This document shows, in pieces, positions 46,828-61,652 of a DNA stretch of 64,000 nt. A program made the translations under genes and the position numbers. Source of the stretch: Desulforegula conservatrix Mb1Pa (GTDB lineage Bacteria > Desulfobacterota > Desulfobacteria > Desulfobacterales > Desulforegulaceae). Location of the stretch: assembly GCF_000426225.1 (NCBI RefSeq), contig NZ_AUEY01000005.1:62001-126000 (forward strand), given 5' to 3'. A model generated the notes under the pieces. The model was given only the letters and a program-made list of their open reading frames with translations. It was not told where the DNA came from and did no database searches. Numbering within the stretch: the first letter of the stretch is position 1; each line of letters opens with the position of its first letter.

Positions 46828-48873
46828 TCATATCAGCCCTGCCACCTGAAGCATCATGTCAATCAGCTTTATTCCGACAAAAGGCGCTATAACTCCGCCA
46901 AGGCCATAAATCAGAAGAGAACGCCTGAGAAGAGCTGAAGCACCTATGGGTCTGTATTTTACGCCGCGCAATGACAGCGGAATCAGCAGTATAATAATGA
47001 TTGCATTGAATATTACGGCGGACAGAATAGCGCTCTGGGGCGAGGCAAGGCGCATGATGTTGAGAGGCGCAATCTGGGGGAGTGCCGAAACAAACAGAGC
47101 CGGAAGAATCGCAAAATACTTGGCTATATCATTTGCGATTGAAAAAGTGGTGAGCGAGCCTCTTGTCATGAGGAGCTGTTTTCCAACCTCGACCACTTCA
47201 AGAAGCTTTGTGGGGTTGGAATCAAGGTCTATCATGTTTCCAGCTTCCTTGGCAGCCTGGGTCCCTGTGTTCATGGCAACCCCGACATCAGCCTGGGCAA
47301 GGGCAGGGGCGTCGTTTGTTCCGTCTCCTGTCATTGCGACAAGCTTGCCTTTTGCCTGTTCTTCCTTGATGAACCTCATTTTGTCTTCCGGGGTGGCTTC
47401 AGCAAGAAAATCGTCAACTCCTGCTTCCTTTGCTATACATGCGGCTGTTCTTTTGTTGTCTCCTGTTATCATGACAGTCCTGATTCCCATGGCCCGGAAA
47501 CGCTCGAACCTGTCCTTTATGCCTTCCTTGACCACGTCCTTGAGATGGATTATGCCGAGAATCCTTGCTCCGTCTGCGACAGCCAGCGGAGTTCCTCCGT
47601 TGTCAGCGATCAGGTTGGTTATATCATGTATTTCCTGGGGTATTTCTCCTCCAAGTTTTGTTACATATACGCAGATGGCGTCAACAGCTCCTTTTCTTAT
47701 TTCCCTGCCGTCTATGTCGCATCCGCTCATGCGGGTATGGGCTGAAAAAGGAATGAAATGAGCATCATGGGATATAAGATCCCTGCCCCTGAGATGGAAT
47801 TCCTCTTTAACCAGAACAACAATTGATCTGCCTTCAGGTGTTTCATCAGCAAGGCTCGAAAGCTGGGCAGCGTCCGCAAGCTCATTTATGTCAATTCCCG
47901 GAGTCGGAATCAGGTCTGTAGCCAGGCGGTTTCCGAGGGTTATGGTTCCTGTCTTGTCAAGAAGAAGGGTGTCCACATCTCCTGCTGCTTCCACTGCGCG
48001 TCCGCTCATGGCAATAACATTTTTACGGATCAGGCGATCCATGCCAGCAATGCCAATCGCGGAAAGAAGCCCGCCGATTGTTGTGGGAATGAGACAGACC
48101 AGAAGGGCGATCATGACTGTTGCAGAAAGATGAATGCCTGAATACGCGGCCATTGGCACAAGACTTACGCATACAATCAGAAAGACGATGGTAAGCCCGA
48201 CAAGAAGAATATGAAGAGCAAGCTCGTTAGGCGTTTTCTGGCGGGAAGTGCCTTCCACAAGGGATATCATCCTGTCTAAAAAAGAGCCTCCGGGATCCGC
48301 GCCTATTTTAATGACAATCCGGTCAGAAAGAACCTTTGTGCCTCCTGTTACTGCGGATCTGTCGCCTCCTGATTCACGGATTACAGGTGCTGATTCGCCT
48401 GTTATTGCGGATTCATCGACCGAGGCTATTCCCTCGATAACCTCGCCGTCTCCGGGTATCATGTCGCCAGCCTCGCACACCACCATGTCTCCCTTTCTGA
48501 GAGTCGAGGATGCAACTGATTCTTCTTTCCCGGAAACCAGTATGCGGGCTTTTATATCCTGACGGAGCTTTCGAAGGGATGCGGCCTGGGCCTTGCCCCT
48601 TCCTTCTGCCACAGCTTCCGCAAAATTGGCAAACAGAAGGGTAAACCAGAGCCATGCTGTTATGCTTCCAGTAAACCATAACGGAGCGGAATCAGCGTCA
48701 GGAGCCACAATATCCCTCAGAAATGCTGCTGTTGTGAGTATGCTGCCGATCTCAACGACAAACATCACCGGATTTTTGATGACATGCACGGGGCTAAGTT
48801 TGCGAACGCTGTCAATGACAGCCTGCATGAGAATATCTTTATTAAAAAGAGAAACTGTTTTTGTATCAGACAT
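46828..48873 (-). CDS. kdpB: Potassium-transporting P-type ATPase subunit B
   Basis: A 681-aa P-type ATPase that energises K+ uptake through KdpA. The phosphorylation motif is [14 protein letters not shown] (Asp ~307), the actuator motif is [11 protein letters not shown] (~153-163), the nucleotide-binding KGAVDAI and hinge motif [17 protein letters not shown] are present, and the membrane helices are complete. It starts 12 bases after the kdpA stop. Length matches the usual ~680 aa. Confidence 0.97.
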
Positions 48874-48885
48874 TTTTTAACCTCA

Positions 48886-50607
48886 TCAAAAAGTTGTGCC
48901 GGTTACGGCCGCGAAATGCTCCACAATCGGCCCCAGAGTAAGTGCGGGGAAAAAAGTCAAAGCTCCGACTATTATGATGACAGATAGAAGCAGGACAAGG
49001 AACATTCCTCCGTCAGTATGGAAAGTGCCTGGGCCAGCTGGAACCGTCTTTTTAGCAGCCATTGAACCTGCGATGGCAAGGACAGGTATGATCATGAAGA
49101 AACGGCCAAACAGCATGGACAGGCCGAGGGTTATATTATACCAGTCTGTGTTGGCGTTAAGTCCTGCAAAGGCTGACCCGTTGTTTCCTGCTGCGCTGGT
49201 GAATGCGTACAGGATTTCTGAAAGTCCGTGGGGCCCGCTGTTGTTCAGGGACGAAACTCCGTAGGGCGCAACTGCCCCCCAGGCCGTGAATCCGAGTATT
49301 ATAATCGGGAATATGAGCACATAGAGCATCACGAACTTCATCTCGTTAGCTTCTATTTTTTTTCCAAGGTATTCTGGAGTGCGTCCAACCATGAGCCCTG
49401 CTATGAATACTGTCAGGATAACGAACATAAGCATTCCGTAAAGCCCTGCCCCGACTCCGCCAAATATTACCTCTCCAAGCTGGATATTCAGCATAGGGAC
49501 AAGGCCGCCTATTGGGTTAAAGCTGTCATGCATGGAATTGACAGCACCGCAGGACGCGTCTGTTGTTACTGTCGCAAAAAGGGAAGATCCTGTTATCCCG
49601 AATCTTGTTTCCTTGCCTTCCATATTGCCCGACTGCACACCCATATTGATTCCTGCAACAGCGGCATTCGGATGGGATTCCGCCCAGTATGTTGTTGCTA
49701 CTCCGGCAGTAAACAGAATTGCCATTGCAGCCCAGATAATCCATCCGTCCTTTTGGCTTTTGGCCATTCGGCCATAAGTGTATGTCAAAGCCGAAGGAAT
49801 CGCAAAAATGAGTATCATTTCAAACATATTGGAAAGCGGTGTCGGATTTTCAAAAGGATGAGCGCTGTTTGCATTGAAAAAACCGCCTCCGTTTGTGCCA
49901 AGTTCCTTGATAGCTTCCTGAGAAGCCACAGGCCCCATTGCAATGATCTGGCTCGATCCTTCAATGGTCATGATTTCATGGTAGGCGCTGAAATTCTGGA
50001 TAACTCCCTGGGAGACAAGAAAAATTGCGGCTATAAAGCTGATGGGCAGAAGCACGTAAATCGTACCCCTGATGAGATCTGCCCAGAAATTGCCGATTGT
50101 GGACGGCATTCCAGGTTTTATCTTTCTGGTGAAACCGCGGGCAATTGCAAGGGCAACGCCGATTCCTGCCGCAGCAGATGTGAAGTTGTGCCACGCGAGC
50201 CCTGCCATCTGCGAGAAATAGCTCATGGTCGTCTCGCCTGAATATGCCTGCCAGTTGGTATTAGTCGTAAAGCTGATGGAGGTGTTCATGGCGAGCCATG
50301 CAGGCACTGGCCCGAATTTCTGGGGGTTCAGAGGTAAAAGATTCTGAAACCTCAGGATCGCGTAAGTGATCAGCATGCTGATCACGCTGAACATAATTAG
50401 AGAGGCGGCGTATTCTTTCCAGCCCTGTTCCTCATCAGGATTAATTCCGCACACCTTGAAAAAGAATCTTTCCAAAGGGCCGAAAATTCGCGGCAGAGGT
50501 CTTTTGGGCCCTTCGAACACACTAAAAAGGTATGTTCCAAGCGGCTTGGTCAAGGCAAATACGACTGCCAAAAATATTAAAATCTGCAACCATCCGTTAA
50601 GTGTCAT
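48886..50607 (-). CDS. kdpA: Potassium-transporting ATPase subunit A
   Basis: A 573-aa channel-like subunit of the superfamily of K+ transporters. Selectivity-filter-type segments are visible, for example SFTTNTNWQAYSGE (~111-124), LGTNGGGFFNANSAHPFENP (~232-251), VTTDASCGAVNSMHDSFNP and SAAGNNGSAFAGL. GGAG lies 6 bases before the ATG on the minus strand. It provides the K+ path for the KdpB pump. Preceded by two very short membrane-peptide genes. Confidence 0.97.
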   Translation of the reverse strand: MTLNGWLQILIFLAVVFALTKPLGTYLFSVFEGPKRPLPRIFGPLERFFFKVCGINPDEEQGWKEYAASLIMFSVISMLITYAILRFQNLLPLNPQKFGPVPAWLAMNTSISFTTNTNWQAYSGETTMSYFSQMAGLAWHNFTSAAAGIGVALAIARGFTRKIKPGMPSTIGNFWADLIRGTIYVLLPISFIAAIFLVSQGVIQNFSAYHEIMTIEGSSQIIAMGPVASQEAIKELGTNGGGFFNANSAHPFENPTPLSNMFEMILIFAIPSALTYTYGRMAKSQKDGWIIWAAMAILFTAGVATTYWAESHPNAAVAGINMGVQSGNMEGKETRFGITGSSLFATVTTDASCGAVNSMHDSFNPIGGLVPMLNIQLGEVIFGGVGAGLYGMLMFVILTVFIAGLMVGRTPEYLGKKIEANEMKFVMLYVLIFPIIILGFTAWGAVAPYGVSSLNNSGPHGLSEILYAFTSAAGNNGSAFAGLNANTDWYNITLGLSMLFGRFFMIIPVLAIAGSMAAKKTVPAGPGTFHTDGGMFLVLLLSVIIIVGALTFFPALTLGPIVEHFAAVTGTTF

Positions 50608-50622
50608 TTTGAACTCCGGGCA

Positions 50623-50712
50623 TTAAAATTTTTCAGGTCTTATCAGGCTGTAAAAGAGATAGATCATCAAAAATACAGCGATGGCGGCACTAATAAGGTA
50701 TTCGGGATTCAT
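50623..50712 (-). CDS. kdpF: KdpF-like 29-aa membrane peptide
   Basis: The minus strand encodes a 29-residue peptide, MNPEYLISAAIAV then FLMIYLFYSLIRPEKF, with one transmembrane helix and the C-terminal pattern found in KdpF (helix, then a Tyr-x-x-Leu-Ile region and a final Phe). KdpF stabilises the Kdp complex in Escherichia coli, where it is also 29 aa. AAGGA lies 10 bases upstream of its ATG, overlapping the end of the preceding small gene. It ends 15 bases before kdpA. Confidence 0.85.
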   Translation of the reverse strand: MNPEYLISAAIAVFLMIYLFYSLIRPEKF

Positions 50713-50715
50713 TTT

Positions 50716-50805
50716 CTATTTCCTTAGTTTTTCAAGTCCGGACAAGTACATGACGCACATGCCGAAAAAGATCATAGTCATGGTTATTGCAAGAAGGTCA
50801 TTCAT
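50716..50805 (-). CDS. 29-aa membrane peptide preceding kdpF
   Basis: The minus strand encodes a second 29-residue hydrophobic peptide, MNDLLAITMTMIFFGMCV then MYLSGLEKLRK, with one transmembrane helix and a basic C-terminus. AGGAG stands 11 bases before the ATG, and it stops 3 bases before the kdpF start. It is the first gene after the sigma-54 promoter. Small proteins at this position occur in other kdp operons, and the role is not known to me. It may be a leader peptide, a regulator or a further subunit. Confidence 0.65.
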   Translation of the reverse strand: MNDLLAITMTMIFFGMCVMYLSGLEKLRK

Positions 50806-50873: not shown

Positions 50874-50889
50874 AGCATATTGCATGCCA
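50874..50889 (-). promoter_or_regulatory. Sigma-54 promoter of the kdp operon
   Basis: On the minus strand TGGCATGCAATATGCT matches TGGCAC-N5-TTGCW with GG and GC separated by exactly 10 bases. It is about 70 bases upstream of the first small gene. It overlaps a palindrome GAGCATAT/ATATGCTC at 50873-50896. The transcription start is expected near 50863. Confidence 0.82.
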
Positions 50890-50982: not shown

Positions 50983-50996
50983 TTGCAAAATGCAAG
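50983..50996 (-). promoter_or_regulatory. Palindromic activator site (UAS candidate) for kdp
   Basis: On the minus strand the sequence CTTGCATTTTGCAA, with TTGCA and TGCAA as half-sites, is flanked by AGAG and CTCT that also pair. The centre is about 110 bases upstream of the promoter -12 element. The identical 14-mer recurs at 52491-52504. Confidence 0.65.
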
Positions 50997-51139
50997 CACT
51001 CTATTAATCCGAATGAAAGCCTTTTCCTTCAGGAGGGCAGATATGACGTGAAAGAATGTTTTTAAATGCTTGGAGGTTATGTGATACTGTCAGAACTAAT
51101 TCATCCTGTTGACTACTCTCATTGAAAGCCCTGCGCCCT

Positions 51140-52468
51140 ATGAATATACTTATAATAGACGATGAACCAAATATCAGAAAAACCCTGTCCATGTGCCTTG
51201 AGTCTTCGGGGCACAGGACAAAGACAGTGAGTTGTTCAAAAGATGCCATTTCAGAGCTGGAGTCAGAGGTTTTTGATCTTGCTTTTGTGGATCTGAGGCT
51301 TGGAACTGAAAGCGGGCTCGATCTTATTCCTTCTATTGTATCTGTTTCTCCTTGGACAAAAATGGTTGTGATAACCGCGTTTGCTTCTGTCGAGACTGCT
51401 GTTGAGGCCATGAAGCTTGGCGCTTCGGATTATCTTGCAAAGCCTTTCAAGCCTGATCAGGTTCTTTTAATAGCAGAGCGAGTCGGTAAAATACGCCGCA
51501 TGGAGCAGAAAATCATCAATCTTCAGAATGATATTGAACGGCTTCATCCTTCGGTTTCATATTCATCATCAAATCCATCAATGCAGAAGGCTTTGGATCT
51601 GGCAGCCGAGGTTGCCGGGTCAGAAGCTGTTGTCATGCTGAGGGGGCCTAGCGGAACCGGTAAAACTGTTCTTGCAAAAGCCATTCATTCATGGAGCAAA
51701 AGAGCTGACAAGCCGCTTGCAGTAATATCATGCCCGTCTCTTTCGGCAGAGCTTCTTGAAAGCGAGCTTTTCGGTCATGTCAAGGGAGCATTCACAGGAG
51801 CGCTCCGGGATAATCCAGGCAGAATAGCTTCCTGCGAAGGAGGGACTCTTTTTCTTGACGAGATTGGAGACCTTCCTCTCCATGTTCAGCCCAAACTGCT
51901 TAGATTTTTACAGGACAGGGAATATGAACGTGTTGGCGATCATAAAACCAGAAAGGCAGACGTAAGAATAATAGCGGCAACAAACGCTGATCTTGAAAAA
52001 GCTGTCAGGGACGGCAGGTTCAGGGAAGATCTGTATTACCGCCTGAATGTGATTCAGATTGATCTTCCGCCTCTTTCAGAAAGACCTTCGGATGTTGAAA
52101 AAATAGCGTCTGACATGCTTTCCTTTTTCGGAGGCCAGAATCATAAAATGTTCAAGGGCTTTTCAGAAGAAGCCATGAAAGCCATGAAAGAATATTTATG
52201 GCCTGGAAACATCCGCGAACTTAGAAATGTGGTGGAAAGGGCGGCCATACTCTGCAAATCTGACACAGTCGATTTATGCCATCTTCCTGATTTTATTCAT
52301 GTCAGAAGTTCTGCCATGCGCATCGGTGATCCGGTTTCCATTTCAGAAATAGAAGAACAGCATATAAGGCGTGTTCTTGCTTCAACAAAAGTCATGCAGG
52401 AAGCCTCCGGGATTCTTGGAATAGATCAGGCAACTCTCTGGAGGAAGCGAAAGCAGTACGGGATATAG
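51140..52468 (+). CDS. Sigma-54-dependent response regulator (NtrC family)
   Basis: A 442-aa protein with three domains. Receiver (residues 1-120) with the acidic pair in IIDDEPN and phospho-acceptor Asp51 in [13 protein letters not shown]. The AAA+ domain (~140-370) has Walker [15 protein letters not shown], the sigma-54-contacting GAFTGA loop in [13 protein letters not shown], and Walker [12 protein letters not shown]. The C-terminus is a Fis-type helix-turn-helix ([18 protein letters not shown]). A TTG at 51122 is in frame, but the ATG at 51140 fits the receiver start. It is divergent from the kdp operon and the probable activator of it. Confidence 0.94.
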
Positions 52469-52490: not shown

Positions 52491-52504
52491 CTTGCATTTT
52501 GCAA
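52491..52504 (+). promoter_or_regulatory. Second copy of the 14-bp UAS palindrome
   Basis: CTTGCATTTTGCAA, identical to the kdp UAS in reverse orientation, followed by GCCTCT where the kdp copy has TACTCT. It is about 360 bases upstream of the sigma-54-type promoter at 52850. Confidence 0.65.
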
Positions 52505-52849: not shown

Positions 52850-52865
52850 TGGCACAAATCCTGCT
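52850..52865 (+). promoter_or_regulatory. Sigma-54-type promoter of the histidine kinase gene
   Basis: TGGCACAAATCCTGCT, with GG and GC exactly 10 bases apart and a perfect TGGCAC element. A start near 52876 would leave a 14-base leader in front of the ATG at 52890, just enough for AAGGAG. Confidence 0.78.
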
Positions 52866-52889: not shown

Positions 52890-54764
52890 ATGATCGGAAT
52901 ACGCCAGAAGCTTGCTCTCGGATTTTTAAGTATTCTTGCAGTCAGTGCCGTAATTGGAGTCATGACAATGAGGCAGATGGATGATCTGGGAAAAGCCATA
53001 GATGTGATCCTCAGGGAAAATTACCGTAGCGTAATTGCCTGCCAGGACATGAAGGAAGCCCTTGAACGCATTGACAGCGCAGCTCTTATCTCTCTTACAG
53101 GAAATGAGCCAGTAAATATTGATGAACAAATCCTGAAATTCGATTCCGCACTTGAAACAGAGCTTGGAAATCTGACAATTCAGGGCGAGGCTGAAAAGGC
53201 TAACAAAATAAGAGCTTTATTCGGAGAATACCTGCCAATACTCAAAATGGTTACAGATACTTCCATTACTATAGATTCCCGCCGTGAAATATATTTCAAT
53301 AAGCTGTATCCATTGTTTTCAGGGATTAAAAACAATGCCCAGGATATTCTCGAAATAAACCAGAAAAACATGACAGATGCCAACGATGCTGCAAGGAGAA
53401 AGGCTTCTTCCGCACGCAGGCATCTGCTGATTGGTATTTTGTCTTCGGCAATTGTGGCGGTTTTATTCATATATCTTATCCAAAGATGGATTCTGGTTCC
53501 TTTAAGAAGGCTTATCGAATCAGCAGAAGAAATAAGTAAAGGAAGACTTGAGCTTGTAATAGAAACTGACTCAAGGGATGAGATGGGGCAATTGTCCGAA
53601 GCTTTTAATTCGATGGCAGAAGGTCTCAGGAAATTTGTCAGAGCGGAACGAATGGGGCTGACACGCGGGAGACGGGCAACAGAAGAGATTTTTAAGATTC
53701 TTCCTGTTGCAATAGCCGTGGCTGATCAAAATGGGATAATCGAGCTTGCCACAGAAGTTGCTGAAAAACAATTCGGGCTTTGTTCAGGTAAGGCTGTTGT
53801 GGATTCAGGTCTGGAATGGCTCAGGGAGATGGTTTCTTCTGTGCAGGCAAATGGTGAATCGGCTGCACTTGAGCGGGATGGGGGCCTGATCCAGCTTTTT
53901 ATTGATAACAGGGAGCATTTTTTCAGACCAGCTGTTATTCCGGTTCGATCTGATTACGCAGATGGAGAACTTTCCGGGGCAGCCATAGTAATTGAAGATG
54001 TAACTGCAATAAGGGAGCAGCAGGAATTGAAGAAAGGAGTGATTTCAACTGTTACCCATCAGCTTAAAACTCCGCTAACATCCCTTCGCATGTCTGTTCA
54101 TCTTCTTCTGGATGAAAAAATAGGGCATATTAATAAAAAACAGACCGAACTTCTCATTGCCGCACGTGACGAGAGCGAACGGCTGGCAAGTATTCTGGAT
54201 GACCTTTTGGATATGGACAGAATTGAATCAGGTCGGGAATTTCTGAATATCAAACCTGTGGACGCTAACATGCTTATCATGGACAGCATCGACTGCTTTG
54301 CCGCGGAGGCAAAGGACAGAGGGTTGAATCTGATCAGCATTCTTCCTGATGATCTTCCTGATGTAATGGCCGATTCAGGCATGGTCGCCCATGTTTTGGC
54401 CAATCTTATTTCAAACACTTTCAAATTCACAGATCCGGGTGGAACAGTAACGATAGGCTCTGAGAGATCCGGTAATATGGTGTGCTTTTCAATCAGGGAT
54501 ACTGGCAAGGGTATTAGTGAAGAGCATATTGGCAGGATTTTTGACAGGTTCTACAGAGTTCCGGGGCAAAATGGCCATTCCGGTGCAGGACTCGGACTTG
54601 CAATCGTAAAGCAGATTGTTGAGGCTCATGGGGGAACCGTAAGCGCTGAGAGCAAGCCTGGCAAAGGATCTGAATTCAGGTTCTCTCTGCCTGTATCTGA
54701 TGGCTGCCACTATTCTTGTGAAAATGAAAATCATGAAAATAAGGATGGGCTGAACCATGACTGA
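52890..54764 (+). CDS. Membrane histidine kinase (HAMP-PAS) linked to Kdp regulation
   Basis: A 624-aa sensor kinase. Transmembrane helix 1 is at residues ~8-27, a periplasmic helical domain spans ~30-175, and helix 2 is at ~178-200. A HAMP domain (~200-255) is followed by a PAS-like domain (~263-375). HisKA has His390 in STVTHQLKTPLTSLR, and the HATPase domain has NLISNTFKFTD and GAGLGLAIVKQIVEAHGG. The gene overlaps the KdpD-like gene by 8 bases and is preceded by a sigma-54-type promoter. It is the likely kinase for the activator at 51140. Confidence 0.92.
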   Translation: MIGIRQKLALGFLSILAVSAVIGVMTMRQMDDLGKAIDVILRENYRSVIACQDMKEALERIDSAALISLTGNEPVNIDEQILKFDSALETELGNLTIQGEAEKANKIRALFGEYLPILKMVTDTSITIDSRREIYFNKLYPLFSGIKNNAQDILEINQKNMTDANDAARRKASSARRHLLIGILSSAIVAVLFIYLIQRWILVPLRRLIESAEEISKGRLELVIETDSRDEMGQLSEAFNSMAEGLRKFVRAERMGLTRGRRATEEIFKILPVAIAVADQNGIIELATEVAEKQFGLCSGKAVVDSGLEWLREMVSSVQANGESAALERDGGLIQLFIDNREHFFRPAVIPVRSDYADGELSGAAIVIEDVTAIREQQELKKGVISTVTHQLKTPLTSLRMSVHLLLDEKIGHINKKQTELLIAARDESERLASILDDLLDMDRIESGREFLNIKPVDANMLIMDSIDCFAAEAKDRGLNLISILPDDLPDVMADSGMVAHVLANLISNTFKFTDPGGTVTIGSERSGNMVCFSIRDTGKGISEEHIGRIFDRFYRVPGQNGHSGAGLGLAIVKQIVEAHGGTVSAESKPGKGSEFRFSLPVSDGCHYSCENENHENKDGLNHD

Positions 54765-56412
54765 AAAACGAGCTGACAGCTTTCTCAGGCTTATAAAAAA
54801 ATCCCGGAGAGGTAGGCTCAAAATTTATCTTGGGTATTGCGCAGGAGTCGGCAAAACATATCAGATGCTGCTTGAAGCCCACAGGATGATGGCTGACGGT
54901 ATTGATGTATCTGTCGGAATAGTCGAAACCCATGGACGAAAGGAAACAGCGGCTCTCATTGAAGGCCTGAAACTGATCCCGCCCCGGATAACCACATACA
55001 GAGGAATAGAGCTTCATGAGCTTGATATTGATGCGATTCTTTCAGCAAAGCCCTCGGTTGTTCTTGTTGACGAGCTTGCCCATACCAATGTGCCAGGAAG
55101 CAGAAATTCAAAAAGATATCAGGATGTCGAAGAAATTCTTGCGGCAGGTATTCATGTTATTTCCACTCTTAATGTCCAGCACCTTGAAAGTCTTTACGAA
55201 ACTGTCGAAAGAGCCACAGGTGTAAAAGTCAAGGAAAGGATTCCTGATCGCGTGGTGGCTGAGGCAGATGAGGTCGTAAATGTGGATCTGACAACCCATG
55301 ATCTGAGGAGGCGTCTGAAAGAAGGGAAAATTTACGGTCATGAAAGGATAACGACTGCACTCGATAATTTTTTCAGACCGGCCAATCTTGAGCAACTCAG
55401 GGAGATTTCTTTGCGTGAAATGGCCGCACATATCGATTCCAAACGAAGAAATCCCCTTGAAGAGCAAGTATCATCAAGCCCTGATCAGGTAATGGTCTGT
55501 CTAAGCTCCAGAGGCCCTAACAGTGAGGCTCTTCTTCGTTATGCATCCCGTCTCGCCGGCAGGCTTAACAGAAACTGGTACGCAATTTACGTTCAGACTG
55601 CTTCAGAGCGGCCCACAGTAATAGATTCCGAAACCCAGCGTCTTTTGTCAAATGCCCTTGGCCTTGCCCAACAGCTTGGCGCGACTGTTTTCACTTACAG
55701 AGGAGACGACATTGTTAAGACAATGCTTCAATTTGCCACTGAATATCGGGTTGGGCACATTGTGATAGGAACTTCGGGCAAAAAGTCTGGTCTTTGGCAG
55801 AGACTGAAAGGAGAGCAGGGGATAGTGGAACGCCTGATTTCCGAAAGCAGGGGAATCACAGTGGTTGTTCTTGATACAAGGCAGATTTATAAGCCAGAAA
55901 AAGCATCGATTGACCATGAAAGAATCCAAGCAGCTAATCCGAGGACTGAAATGCAGTGGCAGAGCCGGATTAGGTCGTTGATTTCAGCAGAGAGAACAAT
56001 TATCTGGAATTCAGGCATGAACAAGGATGCAGCCATGAAAGAGCTTGTGTCGCTTTGCTGTTTAAGCTGCCCTGGCCTTTCTGATGAAAAGGCGTGGAGT
56101 TCGGTTATGCTTAGGGAACTCCAGGGTTCCACATTTTTTGGTGAGGATATAGCTATCCCGCACGCAAGGGTGGACGGCCTTGATCAGCCTGTGATTGCTC
56201 TGGGACTTTCGGCGCACGGCATATTCGAGCATGAAACAGGGCGCAGCACAAGAATCATGTTTCTTCTTCTTTCTCCGGGAAATGACCAGGAAGTTCATCT
56301 AAAATTATTGAGTGAAATAAGTAAGATGAGCAGAGACGATCAGTTCAGAAAAAAGCTTCTGGCTATGGAGTCAAGAAATGGAATTCTGGCCCTTTTTAAT
56401 GAAATCACTTAA
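54757..56412 (+). CDS. KdpD sensor domain-Usp-PTS EIIA fusion, no kinase
   Basis: A 551-aa soluble protein. Residues ~20-230 are the KdpD N-terminal sensor domain with Walker-type GYCAGVGKTYQML and VLVDELAHTNVPGS. Residues ~243-375 are a universal-stress-protein domain (VMVCLSSRGPNSEALLRYAS, HIVIGTSGKKSGLW). Residues ~408-551 are a PTS EIIA-2 (fructose/mannitol/Ntr type) domain with active-site His469 in FGEDIAIPHARVDG. The four transmembrane helices and the kinase core of classical KdpD are absent. It overlaps the kinase gene by 8 bases, so they probably act together. Fusions of this type occur in related bacteria; I know of no assigned function. Confidence 0.9.
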   Translation: MTEKRADSFLRLIKKSRRGRLKIYLGYCAGVGKTYQMLLEAHRMMADGIDVSVGIVETHGRKETAALIEGLKLIPPRITTYRGIELHELDIDAILSAKPSVVLVDELAHTNVPGSRNSKRYQDVEEILAAGIHVISTLNVQHLESLYETVERATGVKVKERIPDRVVAEADEVVNVDLTTHDLRRRLKEGKIYGHERITTALDNFFRPANLEQLREISLREMAAHIDSKRRNPLEEQVSSSPDQVMVCLSSRGPNSEALLRYASRLAGRLNRNWYAIYVQTASERPTVIDSETQRLLSNALGLAQQLGATVFTYRGDDIVKTMLQFATEYRVGHIVIGTSGKKSGLWQRLKGEQGIVERLISESRGITVVVLDTRQIYKPEKASIDHERIQAANPRTEMQWQSRIRSLISAERTIIWNSGMNKDAAMKELVSLCCLSCPGLSDEKAWSSVMLRELQGSTFFGEDIAIPHARVDGLDQPVIALGLSAHGIFEHETGRSTRIMFLLLSPGNDQEVHLKLLSEISKMSRDDQFRKKLLAMESRNGILALFNEIT

Positions 56413-57440: not shown

Positions 57441-60400
57441 CTATTTCAGAGCCATACTGATTTTTTCCTTAAGATCCCCGATTCTATAAGGCTTTTGAAT
57501 GAATCCAGTAAGCCCTTTATTTGCAAAAAGCACTGTGGCTTCATGCTCGCTGTATCCGCTGCTCAGGATAACCTTCTGGTCTGGTTTTATCTTTTTGATT
57601 TCCTTGAATGTGGCGGCCCCGTCAAGCCCGGGCATTGTAAGATCCAGAATTACGCAAACTATTTTATCGGAGTTTTCCTTAAATATGTGCAGGCCTTCGT
57701 ATCCGTTTCTTGCACTTAAGGTGCTGAATCCGAAAACTCTTAAAAAATCTATGCACAGTTCCCTTACGTGGTCTTCATCATCAATGACAAGTATGGTTCC
57801 TGTATTTTCAATATCCGATGAGTTTTTTGGCGTGCCTGTGTTTTGATACCCGTCGGAATTATTTTCAGATACAGGGAAAAGCACCTTGAAAGTGCTGCCT
57901 TTACCTGGTTCGCTGTCCAGAATGATAGCTCCGTGATGTCCTCTTATTATTCCAAGTACAGCAGCCATTCCAAGGCCTCTGCCCGTAAATTTTGTCGTGA
58001 AGAAGGGTTCGAAGATCCGCCTTTCGGTTTCTTTGTCCATGCCGCATCCGTTGTCTGTGACATCAAGAAACGCGAATATTCCTTGTTCAGGTTTTTCCTC
58101 AAGCCTGCTTTGTTTCAGATATTCGTCGGAGCACTCCATTACTCCGGTTGTTAGAGATATTATTCCAGGCGCGTTGCCAATGGCTTCCGCCGCGTTTGTA
58201 ATCAGATTCATTATTATCTGCTGAATTTGCCCTGGATCTGCTTCAATATAAGGAAGATCATTTTTTACAGAAAGATCGAGGGTCACGGTTCTTGCTATTG
58301 ACGCACGGAAAAGCTCAGCGTTTTCTTTGACTATTCCACTTATATTTATCTGCTTGATCTCGAATTTGCCTTTGCCTGAATAGGCGAGCATCTGCCTTGT
58401 CAGCTCTTCTGCCCTGTATGATGCCTGGATTGCCTGTTCAATTCTTGTTTTTGCCTGTGATCCTGAAGGCAGGGTAAGAAGCGCCAGGTCAAGATTACCG
58501 AGTATGCCTGTCAGAAGATTGTTGAAGTCGTGGGCTATGCCCCCTGCCAGAACTCCGAGGCTTTCCAGTTTTTGGGCATGGAGAAGTCTTCTCTCCATTT
58601 CAAGCTTTTCGGCTTCTGCCTGTTTCCGATCGGTTATGTCTGTCATCACTGTGAGCCAGCAGGGGTCGTCCCCTAAATTGAACCTGTCCATGGAAAGTAT
58701 TCCATATACGCAGTTTCCGTTCTTTGCCCTGAGCTTTGCCTCAAAATCCCTTACCTGACCCTTTTCCTGAAAAATACGTTTGATTTCTTCCCTGTCCGAC
58801 GGATCATCAAATATGCCAAGATCCGTTGATTTCTGGCCTATGATTTCTTCCCTTGTGTATCCTGACACTTTTATGAAAGTGTCATTTATATCAATATACC
58901 GGCCTTCGCTCACAGTTGAAATGGCCATGACAGCTGAATTTGAATTGAAGGCGGTGGAAAATTTTTTTTCCGAAAGCTTAAGCTCCGTAATATCCCTGCT
59001 TATCCAGAAAACAGCTGGCTTGCTGTTCCACTCCCCCCTGAATGTTGAAATGTCAACTTCAATAGGATTTTTCTTTTTTGATATCAGGTGGATTCTGGAA
59101 TCGTGCTTGATACCTGAGAACATATCATTAAGCAGTTTACCTTCGCAGTCTGGCTGCTGGCACTCAAGTATGTCTGATATTGGTATCCCCAAAAGTTCTT
59201 CTTCGGAGAATTCAAGGCGCTTTATTACAGAATCGTTTACATGGATGATGATTCCGCTCTCATCAAGAATAAAGATCAGATCATTGACTGTTTCAAAGAA
59301 TGTTTCAAAATTGACCTGGCTCTGGATAAGGGAATCCTCAATATTTTTTCTTTCAGTAATGTCCCTTCCCACTTTGATAAGGCCACGCCTTTTTCCGTCA
59401 GGATAAAACATGGGGATTTTTATATTGTCAAAAACCATTACCGTGCCGTCTTTTTGTGGTATTCTTTCGTCTTTTCTTGTTATTACCCCGAGCTCCCATG
59501 TTTTTTCGTCTGAATCATCCCTTATGTTAAGGGTGTCTCTGTAAAATTTATTGAATTCGGCAAGCTCCGAGTTTTTTTTGCCCCTGTAGTCGACCCCTTC
59601 AAGTCCCATGAGCTTTATATAAAAGTCATTTGCCTCAAGCCATTTCCCGTCTCCATCCTTGAAGCAAACAATATCAGGCATGGAATTTATGAGGGTCCTG
59701 AGTCTTTCCTCATTTTCAGCAAGAGCTTCTTCTGCTTTTTTTCTTTCTGTGATGTCTATGTTTACGCCAACTATGCCTTTGTGCGGAGACTCGGGGAAAA
59801 TGGGAACTATTATCTGGTAATAGTTTGTTTTTGCTCCGTTTATGGAAAATTCGATCTCCCCGATAACCTGCTCTCCGTTATATGCTCTCCGGTTGTTGTG
59901 TTTCCAGATCTCCATGTTTTCAGGGTTTGTGTTTATTTCCTCGGGTGTCTTGCCTATGACATTGCCCCATTTTTTTCTGCTGGCGGAATTCTGGAGTATA
60001 TAGGTCTCTTTCTCATCCAGCGCGAAAATATCAAAGGGAAGGCTCTCAATCGTGGAATACAAAAGGGCTTCGCTTTTTCTGAGGGCCTTTTCAGCCTTTT
60101 TGCGCTCAGTAATGTCCTGAATCATTGCAATAAGGTATTCAACCTCGTTTTTTTGATTTTTAAGGCAGCTTACGGAGATATTGACATGGGCAATGCTTCC
60201 GTCTTTTCTGATATATCTTTTGTCCATGGTGTAGCCGTCAGATTCCCCTGAAATAAGCCTTTCAAAATGCCTTGTTTCCTCTTCAATGTTTTTGGGATCA
60301 GTAATGCTGTCCCATGTCTGGGCCTGGAGTTCCTCCCTGGAGTAACCGAGTATCTCGCATAGCCTGTCGTTGAAATGAACCCATTTTTTGTCAGGAGTTG

Positions 60401-61652
60401 TTGTTGACATGCCTGTAAGCCCGAGCTCGAAGTAGCCCCTGAAAAGTTGTTCGCTTCTGTGGAGAGCTTCTTCTGTTTTTTTCAGCTCTGAGATGTCCCT
60501 TGCCACCCCTAATACAGAGATTGTTTTCCCGTTTGAATCAAATTCCGGGAACAGTTTCCAGTCAAGAAAAAGCTCCCCATGTCCGCTTTCCCAAGCGAAT
60601 GTGGTGCTTTCAGGATTTCCTGTGTCAAAGACTTTTTTTATTTTGCTTTCCCAGAATTCGCAAATGGCCTTATCAAAACCCATTTCACGATGGCTCTTCC
60701 CTATAATTTCTTCAGGTGTTTTTGAGACTATCCTCATCGCCGCCTTATTTGCGTATATGTGCCTGAAGTCCCTGTCGTACCTGAGGATGATATCCTGGCT
60801 GTTTTCGGAAAGGGATCTGTATTTGGCCTCGTTTTCCATGAGGACTTCTTCTGATTTTTTTCTGTCGCTGATGTCCCTTGTAACGGCTATGACTTTTTCG
60901 CTTTTGCCTATTTTTTCATTTTTGAGCGAAACCTCACCGAAAAACAGGCTCCCGTTTTTTCTTTTGCAAAGCCAGTCAAAAACCTGCGGCCCTTCGTTCC
61001 TTGTTTTTTTGATGAACTCCATGGCTTCTTTTCGACTGTAGGGAGGGAATCCTGCTGAAAAAACTTCAATATCGCATTTTAAGGCTTCATCACGCTCATA
61101 CCCATACATTTTGAGCATGCGGTCATTCACATCGAGTATTTTGCCTGTTTTCGCATCGTGTATGAATATAGCCTCGTTTGTCGCGTTGAATATGCTTCGG
61201 TAGTTCTCCTCGCTTTCCTGAAGAGCCTTCTGGGCCTTTATGAGCATCCCTTTTTCTCTGTTAAGGCTGTCGATTTCCTCCTCACTGGTCTTTAAAACAT
61301 ATACGAGATCATCTTCGGAATCCTTCAGGGAGAGCATGCATGTATCTAAGTCTTCATTGCAGATCGTATCAAGAAAACAGGACAGGACATTTATGGGTAA
61401 AGGGATTTCATTTTCAGGGTATGTCATATGCCATAGCCTGGAAGTCAGTTTTGAGCATTCGTTAGATTTGCCCTTTGTCAGAACAATCCCTGTGATCATG
61501 TCCTTCATGAACCCCATTTTTTGCATGAAGACATCCAGGTTTTCTGCAAGGATGCACAGGCAAATGCGGCTCGCTTCTTCAGGATCAGGGATTCTGAGGT
61601 CAAAGCCATCAGGCTTTTCTTGGGTTAGGCTGACGAAGGTTTTGTGTGCCAT
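57441..61652 (-). CDS. Cytoplasmic hybrid histidine kinase with seven PAS domains
   Basis: A 1403-aa protein with no transmembrane helix. Residues 1-145 form an unrecognised N-terminal domain and a helix. Seven PAS/PAC units follow (~148-1020), each ended by a DIxxRKxxEE-type linker (DISDRKKSEEVL, DITERKKAEKAL, DITDRKQAEAEK and others). The HisKA has His ~1039 in GGIAHDFNNLLTG, the HATPase domain has GRGLGMAAVLGIIRGHHG, and the C-terminal receiver has the acceptor Asp (~1335) in VILDLTMPGLDG. It is a single gene. The signal may be redox, light or small ligands, but no cofactor motif is clear. Confidence 0.93.
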   Translation of the reverse strand: MAHKTFVSLTQEKPDGFDLRIPDPEEASRICLCILAENLDVFMQKMGFMKDMITGIVLTKGKSNECSKLTSRLWHMTYPENEIPLPINVLSCFLDTICNEDLDTCMLSLKDSEDDLVYVLKTSEEEIDSLNREKGMLIKAQKALQESEENYRSIFNATNEAIFIHDAKTGKILDVNDRMLKMYGYERDEALKCDIEVFSAGFPPYSRKEAMEFIKKTRNEGPQVFDWLCKRKNGSLFFGEVSLKNEKIGKSEKVIAVTRDISDRKKSEEVLMENEAKYRSLSENSQDIILRYDRDFRHIYANKAAMRIVSKTPEEIIGKSHREMGFDKAICEFWESKIKKVFDTGNPESTTFAWESGHGELFLDWKLFPEFDSNGKTISVLGVARDISELKKTEEALHRSEQLFRGYFELGLTGMSTTTPDKKWVHFNDRLCEILGYSREELQAQTWDSITDPKNIEEETRHFERLISGESDGYTMDKRYIRKDGSIAHVNISVSCLKNQKNEVEYLIAMIQDITERKKAEKALRKSEALLYSTIESLPFDIFALDEKETYILQNSASRKKWGNVIGKTPEEINTNPENMEIWKHNNRRAYNGEQVIGEIEFSINGAKTNYYQIIVPIFPESPHKGIVGVNIDITERKKAEEALAENEERLRTLINSMPDIVCFKDGDGKWLEANDFYIKLMGLEGVDYRGKKNSELAEFNKFYRDTLNIRDDSDEKTWELGVITRKDERIPQKDGTVMVFDNIKIPMFYPDGKRRGLIKVGRDITERKNIEDSLIQSQVNFETFFETVNDLIFILDESGIIIHVNDSVIKRLEFSEEELLGIPISDILECQQPDCEGKLLNDMFSGIKHDSRIHLISKKKNPIEVDISTFRGEWNSKPAVFWISRDITELKLSEKKFSTAFNSNSAVMAISTVSEGRYIDINDTFIKVSGYTREEIIGQKSTDLGIFDDPSDREEIKRIFQEKGQVRDFEAKLRAKNGNCVYGILSMDRFNLGDDPCWLTVMTDITDRKQAEAEKLEMERRLLHAQKLESLGVLAGGIAHDFNNLLTGILGNLDLALLTLPSGSQAKTRIEQAIQASYRAEELTRQMLAYSGKGKFEIKQINISGIVKENAELFRASIARTVTLDLSVKNDLPYIEADPGQIQQIIMNLITNAAEAIGNAPGIISLTTGVMECSDEYLKQSRLEEKPEQGIFAFLDVTDNGCGMDKETERRIFEPFFTTKFTGRGLGMAAVLGIIRGHHGAIILDSEPGKGSTFKVLFPVSENNSDGYQNTGTPKNSSDIENTGTILVIDDEDHVRELCIDFLRVFGFSTLSARNGYEGLHIFKENSDKIVCVILDLTMPGLDGAATFKEIKKIKPDQKVILSSGYSEHEATVLFANKGLTGFIQKPYRIGDLKEKISMALK

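What the first reader, a model, noticed from the sequence alone, without database searches (positions are those of the whole stretch)
54757..56412. KdpD sensor domain detached from its kinase and fused to Usp and PTS EIIA
The protein keeps the KdpD sensor and Usp parts but lacks membrane helices and the kinase core; a PTS EIIA-2 domain with active-site His469 is attached. A separate HAMP-PAS kinase gene overlaps it by 8 bases. EIIA-Ntr is known to bind KdpD and affect K+ uptake in enteric bacteria, so the fusion may join two known partners in one polypeptide and could gate the neighbouring kinase.
Basis: partly seen in the sequence, partly recalled or inferred. Interest (0 to 1): 0.68.

Follow-up and report, generated by a model that had tools for sequence, protein, structure and literature searches.

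The report
Potassium-pump switch fused to a phosphotransferase domain
A soluble protein that probably switches off the bacterial potassium pump carries, in one chain, an extra domain that cells use to report their energy and nutrient state by phosphorylation, so potassium uptake may be tied directly to metabolism in sulfate-reducing and green sulfur bacteria.

Summary
The 551-residue ORF at 54757-56412 (+) is KdpD domain, KdpD-type Usp domain, then an EIIA-2 domain of EIIA-Ntr fold with His469; no membrane helix, no histidine kinase; it overlaps a separate kinase gene by 8 bases. It is a real family: in 44 distinct fusions, mostly from Desulfobacterota-type and Chlorobiaceae-type genomes, the phosphorylatable His and its partner Arg are invariant. 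The 43 fused EIIA domains analysed form one clade, so the fusion probably arose once. The split layout (NtrC-type regulator, kinase, short KdpD) is known from Desulfovibrio vulgaris (DVU3334-3336), and short KdpDs are known KdpB serine kinases; I found no account of the EIIA domain in the papers searched. The serine-kinase residues are kept, so I read the protein as a soluble KdpB serine kinase with a built-in PTS input, co-expressed with its kinase partner under sigma-54 control. The assembly's only two copies of TTGCATTTTGCAA lie upstream of the kdp and kinase-fusion operons. No function was tested.

The parts
54757..56412 (+). KdpD-Usp-EIIA fusion protein (551 aa)
   Evidence: Pfam PF02702 and PF00359; model pLDDT 85.4, pTM 0.49; Foldseek 2r8r, 7ji4, 3urr, 1a6j
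54805..55434 (+). KdpD domain, residues 17-226: G26-X5-G32K33T34, D105/E106, R186, equivalent to the E. coli atypical serine kinase residues
   Evidence: E. coli residue roles from PMC11018627
55480..55881 (+). Usp domain, residues 242-375, with the E. coli-type RXXXR-X8-WXA(V/I)Y motif
   Evidence: motif definitions from PMC4686210 and PMC8214093
55966..56403 (+). EIIA-2 (EIIA-Ntr-like) domain, residues 404-549, Arg453 and phosphorylatable His469 (codon 56161-56163)
52890..54764 (+). membrane histidine kinase (weak 4HB sensor match, HAMP, HisKA with His389, HATPase)
51122..52468 (+). NtrC-family response regulator with GAFTGA (likely true start ATG at 51140, by inspection)
52850..52865 (+). 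sigma-54-type site TGGCACAAATCCTGCT, 24 bases before the kinase start codon
52492..52504 (+). palindrome TTGCATTTTGCAA, candidate regulator site for the kinase-fusion operon
50874..50889 (-). sigma-54-type site TGGCATGCAATATGCT upstream of kdpF/kdpA
50983..50995 (-). palindrome TTGCATTTTGCAA, candidate regulator site for kdp
50716..50805 (-). 29-aa hydrophobic ORF before kdpF
50623..50712 (-). kdpF-like ORF, 29 aa (named from position and sequence, recalled; no family search)
48886..50607 (-). kdpA
   Evidence: PF03814 E 3e-245
46828..48873 (-). kdpB, TGES motif with Ser161 (E. coli Ser162)
   Evidence: TIGR01497
46054..46686 (-). kdpC
   Evidence: PF02669 E 4.3e-73

Best explanation
The protein is a detached, soluble KdpD N-terminal half that acts as an atypical serine kinase on KdpB (Ser161 here) and so shuts the Kdp pump when K+ uptake must stop. 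The C-terminal EIIA domain is its built-in input: the PTS (EI, then HPr) phosphorylates His469 when PEP is plentiful, and the phosphorylation state sets the activity of the serine kinase. Transcription is a separate arm: the membrane kinase 52890-54764 senses the stimulus and activates the NtrC-type regulator, which fires sigma-54 promoters for kdpFABC and for the kinase-fusion operon, so the pump and its off-switch are made together. Shown here by sequence: architecture, intact catalytic residues, conserved gene cluster, promoter-like sites and palindromes, presence of EI and HPr genes. Inferred: KdpB phosphorylation by this protein, His469 phosphorylation, the direction of its effect, and regulator binding. 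The confidence is for a KdpB output with EIIA input, with or without an added effect on the kinase, so it overlaps with the second rival.
For: The serine-kinase residues of E. coli KdpD (G36 K37 T38, D109, E110, R190) are kept at a constant offset of four: 43 of 43 fusions with letters there, R186 in 44 of 44; W39 is Tyr here and aromatic in 40 of 43 (roles from PMC11018627). A short KdpD/Usp protein of Deinococcus does phosphorylate KdpB. kdpABC is in the cluster in 28 of 32 loci. KdpB ORFs, partial ones included, show TGES in 37 of 40 loci, although TGES is general to P-type ATPases (recalled). His469, Pro468, Arg453 and Glu454 are invariant in 44 of 44 although the aligned EIIA domains are only 28-47% identical to the window's. 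EI and HPr families are found in 24 of 24 genomes searched, with and without the fusion, G000 included. The Usp domain lacks the c-di-AMP consensus, and 17 of 17 Chlorobiaceae-type fusion genomes lack a detectable diadenylate cyclase, so an input other than c-di-AMP is needed there. Separate EIIA genes near kdp in five loci of other lineages and in alphaproteobacteria (PMC13104625) point to the same link.
Against: In four Chlorobiaceae-type loci the fusion has no kdpABC beside it, and two of those genomes (G465, G511; completeness not given) have no KdpA match at all, yet GKT, DE, R186 and His469 are kept in 4 of 4; KdpB cannot be the only target there. Diadenylate cyclase is present in G000 and in 18 of 22 fusion genomes of the window's phylum, so EIIA is not simply a replacement for c-di-AMP. 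Nine relatives inside the same clade lack EIIA, so the domain is dispensable in some lineages. The model does not fix how EIIA sits on the kinase domain (pTM 0.49). The EIIA domain falls below the PtsN equivalog cut-off. No biochemistry was done.
Confidence: 0.5

Rival explanations
1. One reading: the fusion is the soluble sensory subunit of the neighbouring histidine kinase. EIIA and the KdpD-Usp part bind the kinase and gate its activity, and so kdp transcription; KdpB phosphorylation is minor or absent.
For: A kinase orthologue is in the cluster in 32 of 32 loci and the regulator, whole or in part, in 30 of 32, the two misses at contig or stretch starts. In L184, L185, L191 and L193 kinase and fusion are next to each other without kdpABC, and 2 of those genomes lack a KdpA match. 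The two genes overlap by 8 bases in the window. PtsN controls KdpD kinases in E. coli and rhizobia.
Against: The PtsN contact sites seen named are in the GAF or transmitter part of KdpD, absent here. Serine-kinase residues are kept. In most loci the fusion follows kdpC rather than the kinase gene. In the kdp-less loci the sigma-54-type site before the kinase gene is degraded or absent and none was found before the KimA-like gene in those loci, so they may be drifting.
Confidence: 0.33
2. Both outputs (overlaps with the best explanation): the fusion passes the PTS signal to KdpB as a serine kinase and also gates the histidine kinase, as full-length KdpD carries both activities in one chain.
For: Combines the evidence of the best explanation and of the first rival; full-length KdpD is such a tandem kinase (PMC11018627).
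Against: No direct evidence for either contact in these organisms.
Confidence: 0.3
3. The EIIA domain is only a docking or dimerisation module, or a remnant, and is not phosphorylated.
For: Probably lost about three times within the clade (inferred); the EIIA sequence diverges fast.
Against: His469 and Arg453 invariant in 44 of 44 against a variable background; EI and HPr genes in 24 of 24 genomes searched.
Confidence: 0.1
4. Assembly or annotation artefact.
For: One fusion gene is split by a frameshift (G297, L110) and one across contigs (G208).
Against: Same single-ORF architecture in 21 of 395 genomes (G000 included) and 15 of 148 genomes in two searches.
Confidence: 0.01

Closest known systems
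Short KdpD/Usp serine kinase (Deinococcus geothermalis KdpD; PMC11018627)
   Same: KdpD and Usp domains, no membrane or histidine-kinase core; serine-kinase residues kept
   Different: Has an added EIIA domain; Usp lacks the c-di-AMP consensus of S. aureus-type KdpD (the Deinococcus Usp was not compared here); KdpB phosphorylation not tested
Split Kdp system of Desulfovibrio vulgaris DVU3334-DVU3336 (PMC3333781, PMC4641369)
   Same: GAFTGA response regulator, separate histidine kinase, KdpD-UspA protein, sigma-54 control of kdp
   Different: EIIA domain on the KdpD-Usp protein here; the passages read mention none for DVU3336 (its sequence was not examined)
EIIA-Ntr (PtsN) and its control of KdpD (PMC9239096, PMC13104625)
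   Same: Domain fold and active-site His; link to Kdp
   Different: Here covalently attached to the KdpD N-terminal half; the contact sites seen named are in other KdpD parts; ptsN-in-kdp-operon cases are separate genes
NCBIfam NF038185 KdpD-like non-kinase potassium sensor
   Same: Residues 4-371 match nearly the whole profile
   Different: 355.6 bits against a cut-off of 550; the 373-position model has no room for EIIA

Membership tests
Short KdpD/Usp atypical serine kinase | KdpD domain plus Usp, no membrane helices, no histidine kinase | tested here: met
Short KdpD/Usp atypical serine kinase | G-X5-GKT, Walker B DE, adenine-binding Arg and aromatic residue | tested here: met
   E. coli Trp39 is Tyr35 here
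Short KdpD/Usp atypical serine kinase | phosphorylates KdpB on the TGES Ser | not testable with these tools
   Ser161 is present in the window KdpB but is not diagnostic
c-di-AMP-binding KdpD (a subset of KdpDs) | Usp consensus (A/G/C)-X-S-X-S-X2-N-(Y/F) | tested here: not met
   Window CLSSRGPNS lacks the second Ser and the final aromatic; it has the E. coli-type motif
NF038185 KdpD-like non-kinase potassium sensor | curated cut-off 550 bits | tested here: not met
   355.6 bits
PTS EIIA-2 (Pfam PF00359) | score over gathering cut-off; active-site His | tested here: met
   75.4 against 27 bits; His469 in 44 of 44
EIIA-Ntr / PtsN (TIGR01419 equivalog) | curated cut-off 138.7 bits | tested here: not met
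   56.8 bits; the best-matching solved EIIA folds are EIIA-Ntr
EIIA-Ntr / PtsN (TIGR01419 equivalog) | phosphorylated on His by HPr/NPr | not testable with these tools
   EI and HPr genes are present
D. vulgaris-type split sigma-54 Kdp system | NtrC-type regulator with GAFTGA, separate kinase, KdpD-Usp protein, kdpABC | tested here: met
D. vulgaris-type split sigma-54 Kdp system | sigma-54 promoter for kdp and a regulator binding site | tested here: inconclusive
   Sites at 50874-50889 and 52850-52865 and two palindromes found only here in the assembly; hit counts in the window alone are at chance level; binding not tested; D. vulgaris motif not compared

The most novel reading that the evidence does not exclude
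A single polypeptide in which PTS phosphorylation of a built-in EIIA domain directly switches an atypical serine kinase, a one-protein link from PEP status to K+ uptake that needs neither K+-sensing membrane domains nor c-di-AMP. The regulator-kinase-fusion unit is portable: in some Chlorobiaceae-type genomes it stands with a KimA-like K+ transporter and without KdpFABC.
Probability: 0.35. Interest if true: 0.75.

Novelty: new variant of a known kind. Interest (0 to 1): 0.56.

Why it matters
[quoted passage not shown] A protein in which the phosphorylatable EIIA and the KdpD serine kinase are one chain makes the question testable with a purified protein and point mutants of one His. It would also give an input signal for short KdpDs in bacteria with no detectable diadenylate cyclase.

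Tried and rejected
Rejected: that the EIIA domain replaces c-di-AMP outright. Diadenylate cyclase is found in 18 of 22 fusion genomes of the window's phylum and in G000, in 0 of 17 Chlorobiaceae-type fusion genomes, in 7 of 15 genomes with the short EIIA-less form in the phylum of G006 (one of the 7 marginal), and in 16 of 16 such genomes tested in the window's phylum; the pattern follows lineage.

Rejected: that kdp-less copies show clear loss of serine-kinase function. Deviations at KdpD-domain positions otherwise invariant are 1, 5, 2 and 2 (L184, L185, L191, L193) against a mean of 0.49 and a maximum of 3 in 35 other fusion copies, one duplicate pair among them; L185 and L193 also deviate in Usp (4 each) and EIIA (2 each). 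The catalytic residues are kept.

Negative or weak: the number of sigma-54-type hits in the window is at chance level for both patterns used (TGGCA-N7-TGC: 3 found, 2.8 expected; two-mismatch consensus: 42 found, 37.7 expected). The promoter claim rests on position (2 of the 3 tight hits lie before these two operons), on the palindromes, and on recurrence in other loci. The palindrome with up to one mismatch is found twice in the window, 0.52 expected, 10 of 100 shuffles as high; exact copies in the whole assembly number 2, control pattern 0. Sites within 300 bases before the kinase gene: 19 of 41 loci, 18 of them at -32 to -72, against 180 of 8200 shuffles; 22 loci had none at the threshold; the 41 include two duplicate pairs and seven EIIA-less loci. 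No sigma-54-type site with palindrome was found before the KimA-like gene in 7 loci (one weak site in L196). In the four kdp-less loci the site before the kinase gene is degraded or absent.

Lentisphaerae and planctomycete loci with the short form and no kdpABC nearby (L017, L020, L021): seven chosen ORFs scanned; the only transporter gene of interest was a Na+/H+ exchanger-family gene about 6 kb away in L021. KdpA is found elsewhere in those genomes (G014, G016, G017). Plasmid records: 457 matched, 30 listed, none of the 30 aligned past residue 469, so no fusion was seen there.

Dropped rows: three duplicate fusions (L088, L120, L124) before the 44-row alignment; L110, L015, L057 and 30 of 38 full-length KdpDs before the KdpD tree; L007, too short, from the EIIA tree, in which one free EIIA is present twice (L002 and L149). 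Duplicates L192 and L201 are left out of the 32 loci counted.

Literature: nine searches listed no paper that I could see to describe an EIIA domain fused to KdpD; I read only the listings and, of eight papers, passages or sections, in an open-licence library.
Full report
WHAT IS THERE. The ORF at 54757-56412 (+) encodes 551 residues. Pfam gives KdpD (17-226, E 1.3e-93) and PTS_EIIA_2 (409-549, E 6e-21, positions 3-143 of 144). An AlphaFold2 model from a 50-row alignment has mean pLDDT 85.4 but pTM 0.49, with low-confidence linkers at 232-241 and 378-395: the domains are well modelled, their arrangement is not. Foldseek matches the solved KdpD N-terminal domain 2r8r (TM 0.95 by target), EIIA-Ntr 3urr and 1a6j (0.82, 0.85), and the KdpD-USP domain 7ji4 (0.83). 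No transmembrane segment is predicted.

SURROUNDINGS. Upstream on the same strand lie an NtrC-family response regulator with GAFTGA (51122-52468) and a membrane histidine kinase (52890-54764) whose end overlaps the fusion by 8 bases. Divergent from these are kdpF, A, B and C. Sigma-54-type sites lie at 50874-50889 (-), upstream of kdp, and 52850-52865 (+), 24 bases before the kinase start codon. By number alone such hits in the window are at chance level. The 13-base palindrome TTGCATTTTGCAA occurs at 50983-50995 and 52492-52504 and nowhere else in the 4.47 Mb assembly. The same palindrome occurs twice in a Victivallis locus, each copy upstream of a sigma-54-type site (L017). Before the kinase gene in related loci a site is found in 19 of 41, against 180 of 8200 shuffles, and TTGCA-N3-TGCAA-like palindromes lie further upstream in eight of the loci. 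The genome has one sigma-54 gene match, 0.6 kb from a free EIIA gene, so a separate PtsN-like protein exists beside the fused one.

THE FAMILY. In the window's phylum 77 of 395 genomes match at E 1e-20 or better; 21, G000 included, have the fusion in one ORF, and 2 more have it broken by a frameshift or a contig end. In the phylum of G006, the genome of a Chlorobiaceae record (L009), 40 of 148 match: 15 genomes with the fusion (two have two copies), 15 with a short EIIA-less form, 10 full-length. Across 44 distinct fusion proteins Arg453, Glu454, Pro468 and His469 are invariant. A tree of the KdpD-Usp part puts all 43 fused rows in one 52-row clade together with 9 EIIA-less rows; the label needs at least 4 changes on that tree, 2 forced by strongly supported branches. 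A tree of the EIIA part puts all 43 fused domains in one clade (SH-aLRT 98) apart from 28 free or kdp-adjacent EIIA rows. The simplest history is one fusion and about three losses. Both trees are quick searches. The Chlorobiaceae-type rows form one supported clade near the Desulfobacteraceae ones, which suggests transfer between phyla.

GENE NEIGHBOURHOOD. I count 32 distinct related loci that reach upstream of the fusion (22, 10 more). A kinase orthologue is present in 32 and the regulator in 30; the two without a regulator (L193, L194) begin at a contig or stretch start. In four of the 30 the regulator is only a piece: cut by the fetched stretch in L181, L182 and L196, and a 107-residue ORF in L183. 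kdpABC is in the cluster in 28. The four exceptions are Chlorobiaceae-type: L184, L185 and L191 have regulator, KimA-like transporter, kinase and fusion; L193 has kinase and fusion at a contig start, and its genome carries a second fusion copy with kdpABC (L192). The L185 transporter matches KimA 6s3k at E 4.7e-67. G465 and G511 (L184, L185) have no KdpA match, out of 38 fusion genomes of which 34 have one; the other two without, G136 and G160, are 76 and 82% complete. In a further 18 genomes 16 have KdpA; G001 and G004, both with a fusion, have none.

HOW IT MAY WORK. Silberberg et al. (PMC11018627; abstract, passages and section 8 read) showed that the KdpD N-terminal domain is an atypical serine kinase that phosphorylates KdpB Ser162, that short KdpD/Usp proteins without a histidine-kinase core are common, and that a Deinococcus form phosphorylates E. 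coli KdpB and is stimulated by c-di-AMP. The corresponding residues are kept here at an offset of four. The window Usp lacks the c-di-AMP consensus. Diadenylate cyclase is not found in 17 of 17 Chlorobiaceae-type fusion genomes but is found in 18 of 22 of the window's phylum and in G000. EI and HPr are found in 24 of 24 genomes. I therefore favour a KdpB serine kinase whose input is the PTS-phosphorylated EIIA. I keep kinase gating as a serious rival because the kinase is the more constant neighbour.

KNOWN AND NEW. The split arrangement with a sigma-54 regulator is known in D. vulgaris (PMC3333781, PMC4641369; passages), split KdpD-N in Deinococcus and cyanobacteria (PMC5716572; passages), and ptsN inside kdp operons in about 10% of alphaproteobacterial genomes (PMC13104625; passages). 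PtsN control of KdpD is known (PMC9239096; passages). The c-di-AMP motifs come from PMC4686210 and PMC8214093 (passages). I saw no description of an EIIA-bearing KdpD in what nine searches listed and in what I read of these eight papers. It is a new variant of a known kind.

LIMITS. No interaction, phosphorylation or expression was tested.

Noticed in passing
window 50983-50995 and 52492-52504: Palindrome TTGCATTTTGCAA, only two copies in the whole assembly, each upstream of a sigma-54-type site of this locus.
   Followed up: yes
L184 4885-6879, L185 5226-7208, L191 5139-7142 (oriented by the fusion): KimA-like K+ transporter gene between regulator and kinase in Chlorobiaceae-type loci that lack kdpABC.
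   Followed up: partly
window 50716-50805 (-): 29-residue hydrophobic ORF between the sigma-54-type site and kdpF.
   Followed up: no
L053 12350-12847, L058 4321-4782, L026 2558-3079, L032 2468-2974, L036 2309-2788: Separate EIIA genes near kdp in Rhodospirillales, Archangium and Kapaibacterium loci.
   Followed up: partly
window 57441-61652 (-): 1403-residue hybrid histidine kinase with many PAS domains and a receiver domain.
   Followed up: no
L184, L185, L191, L193 upstream of the kinase gene: The sigma-54-type site seen in kdp-carrying relatives is degraded or absent.
   Followed up: partly
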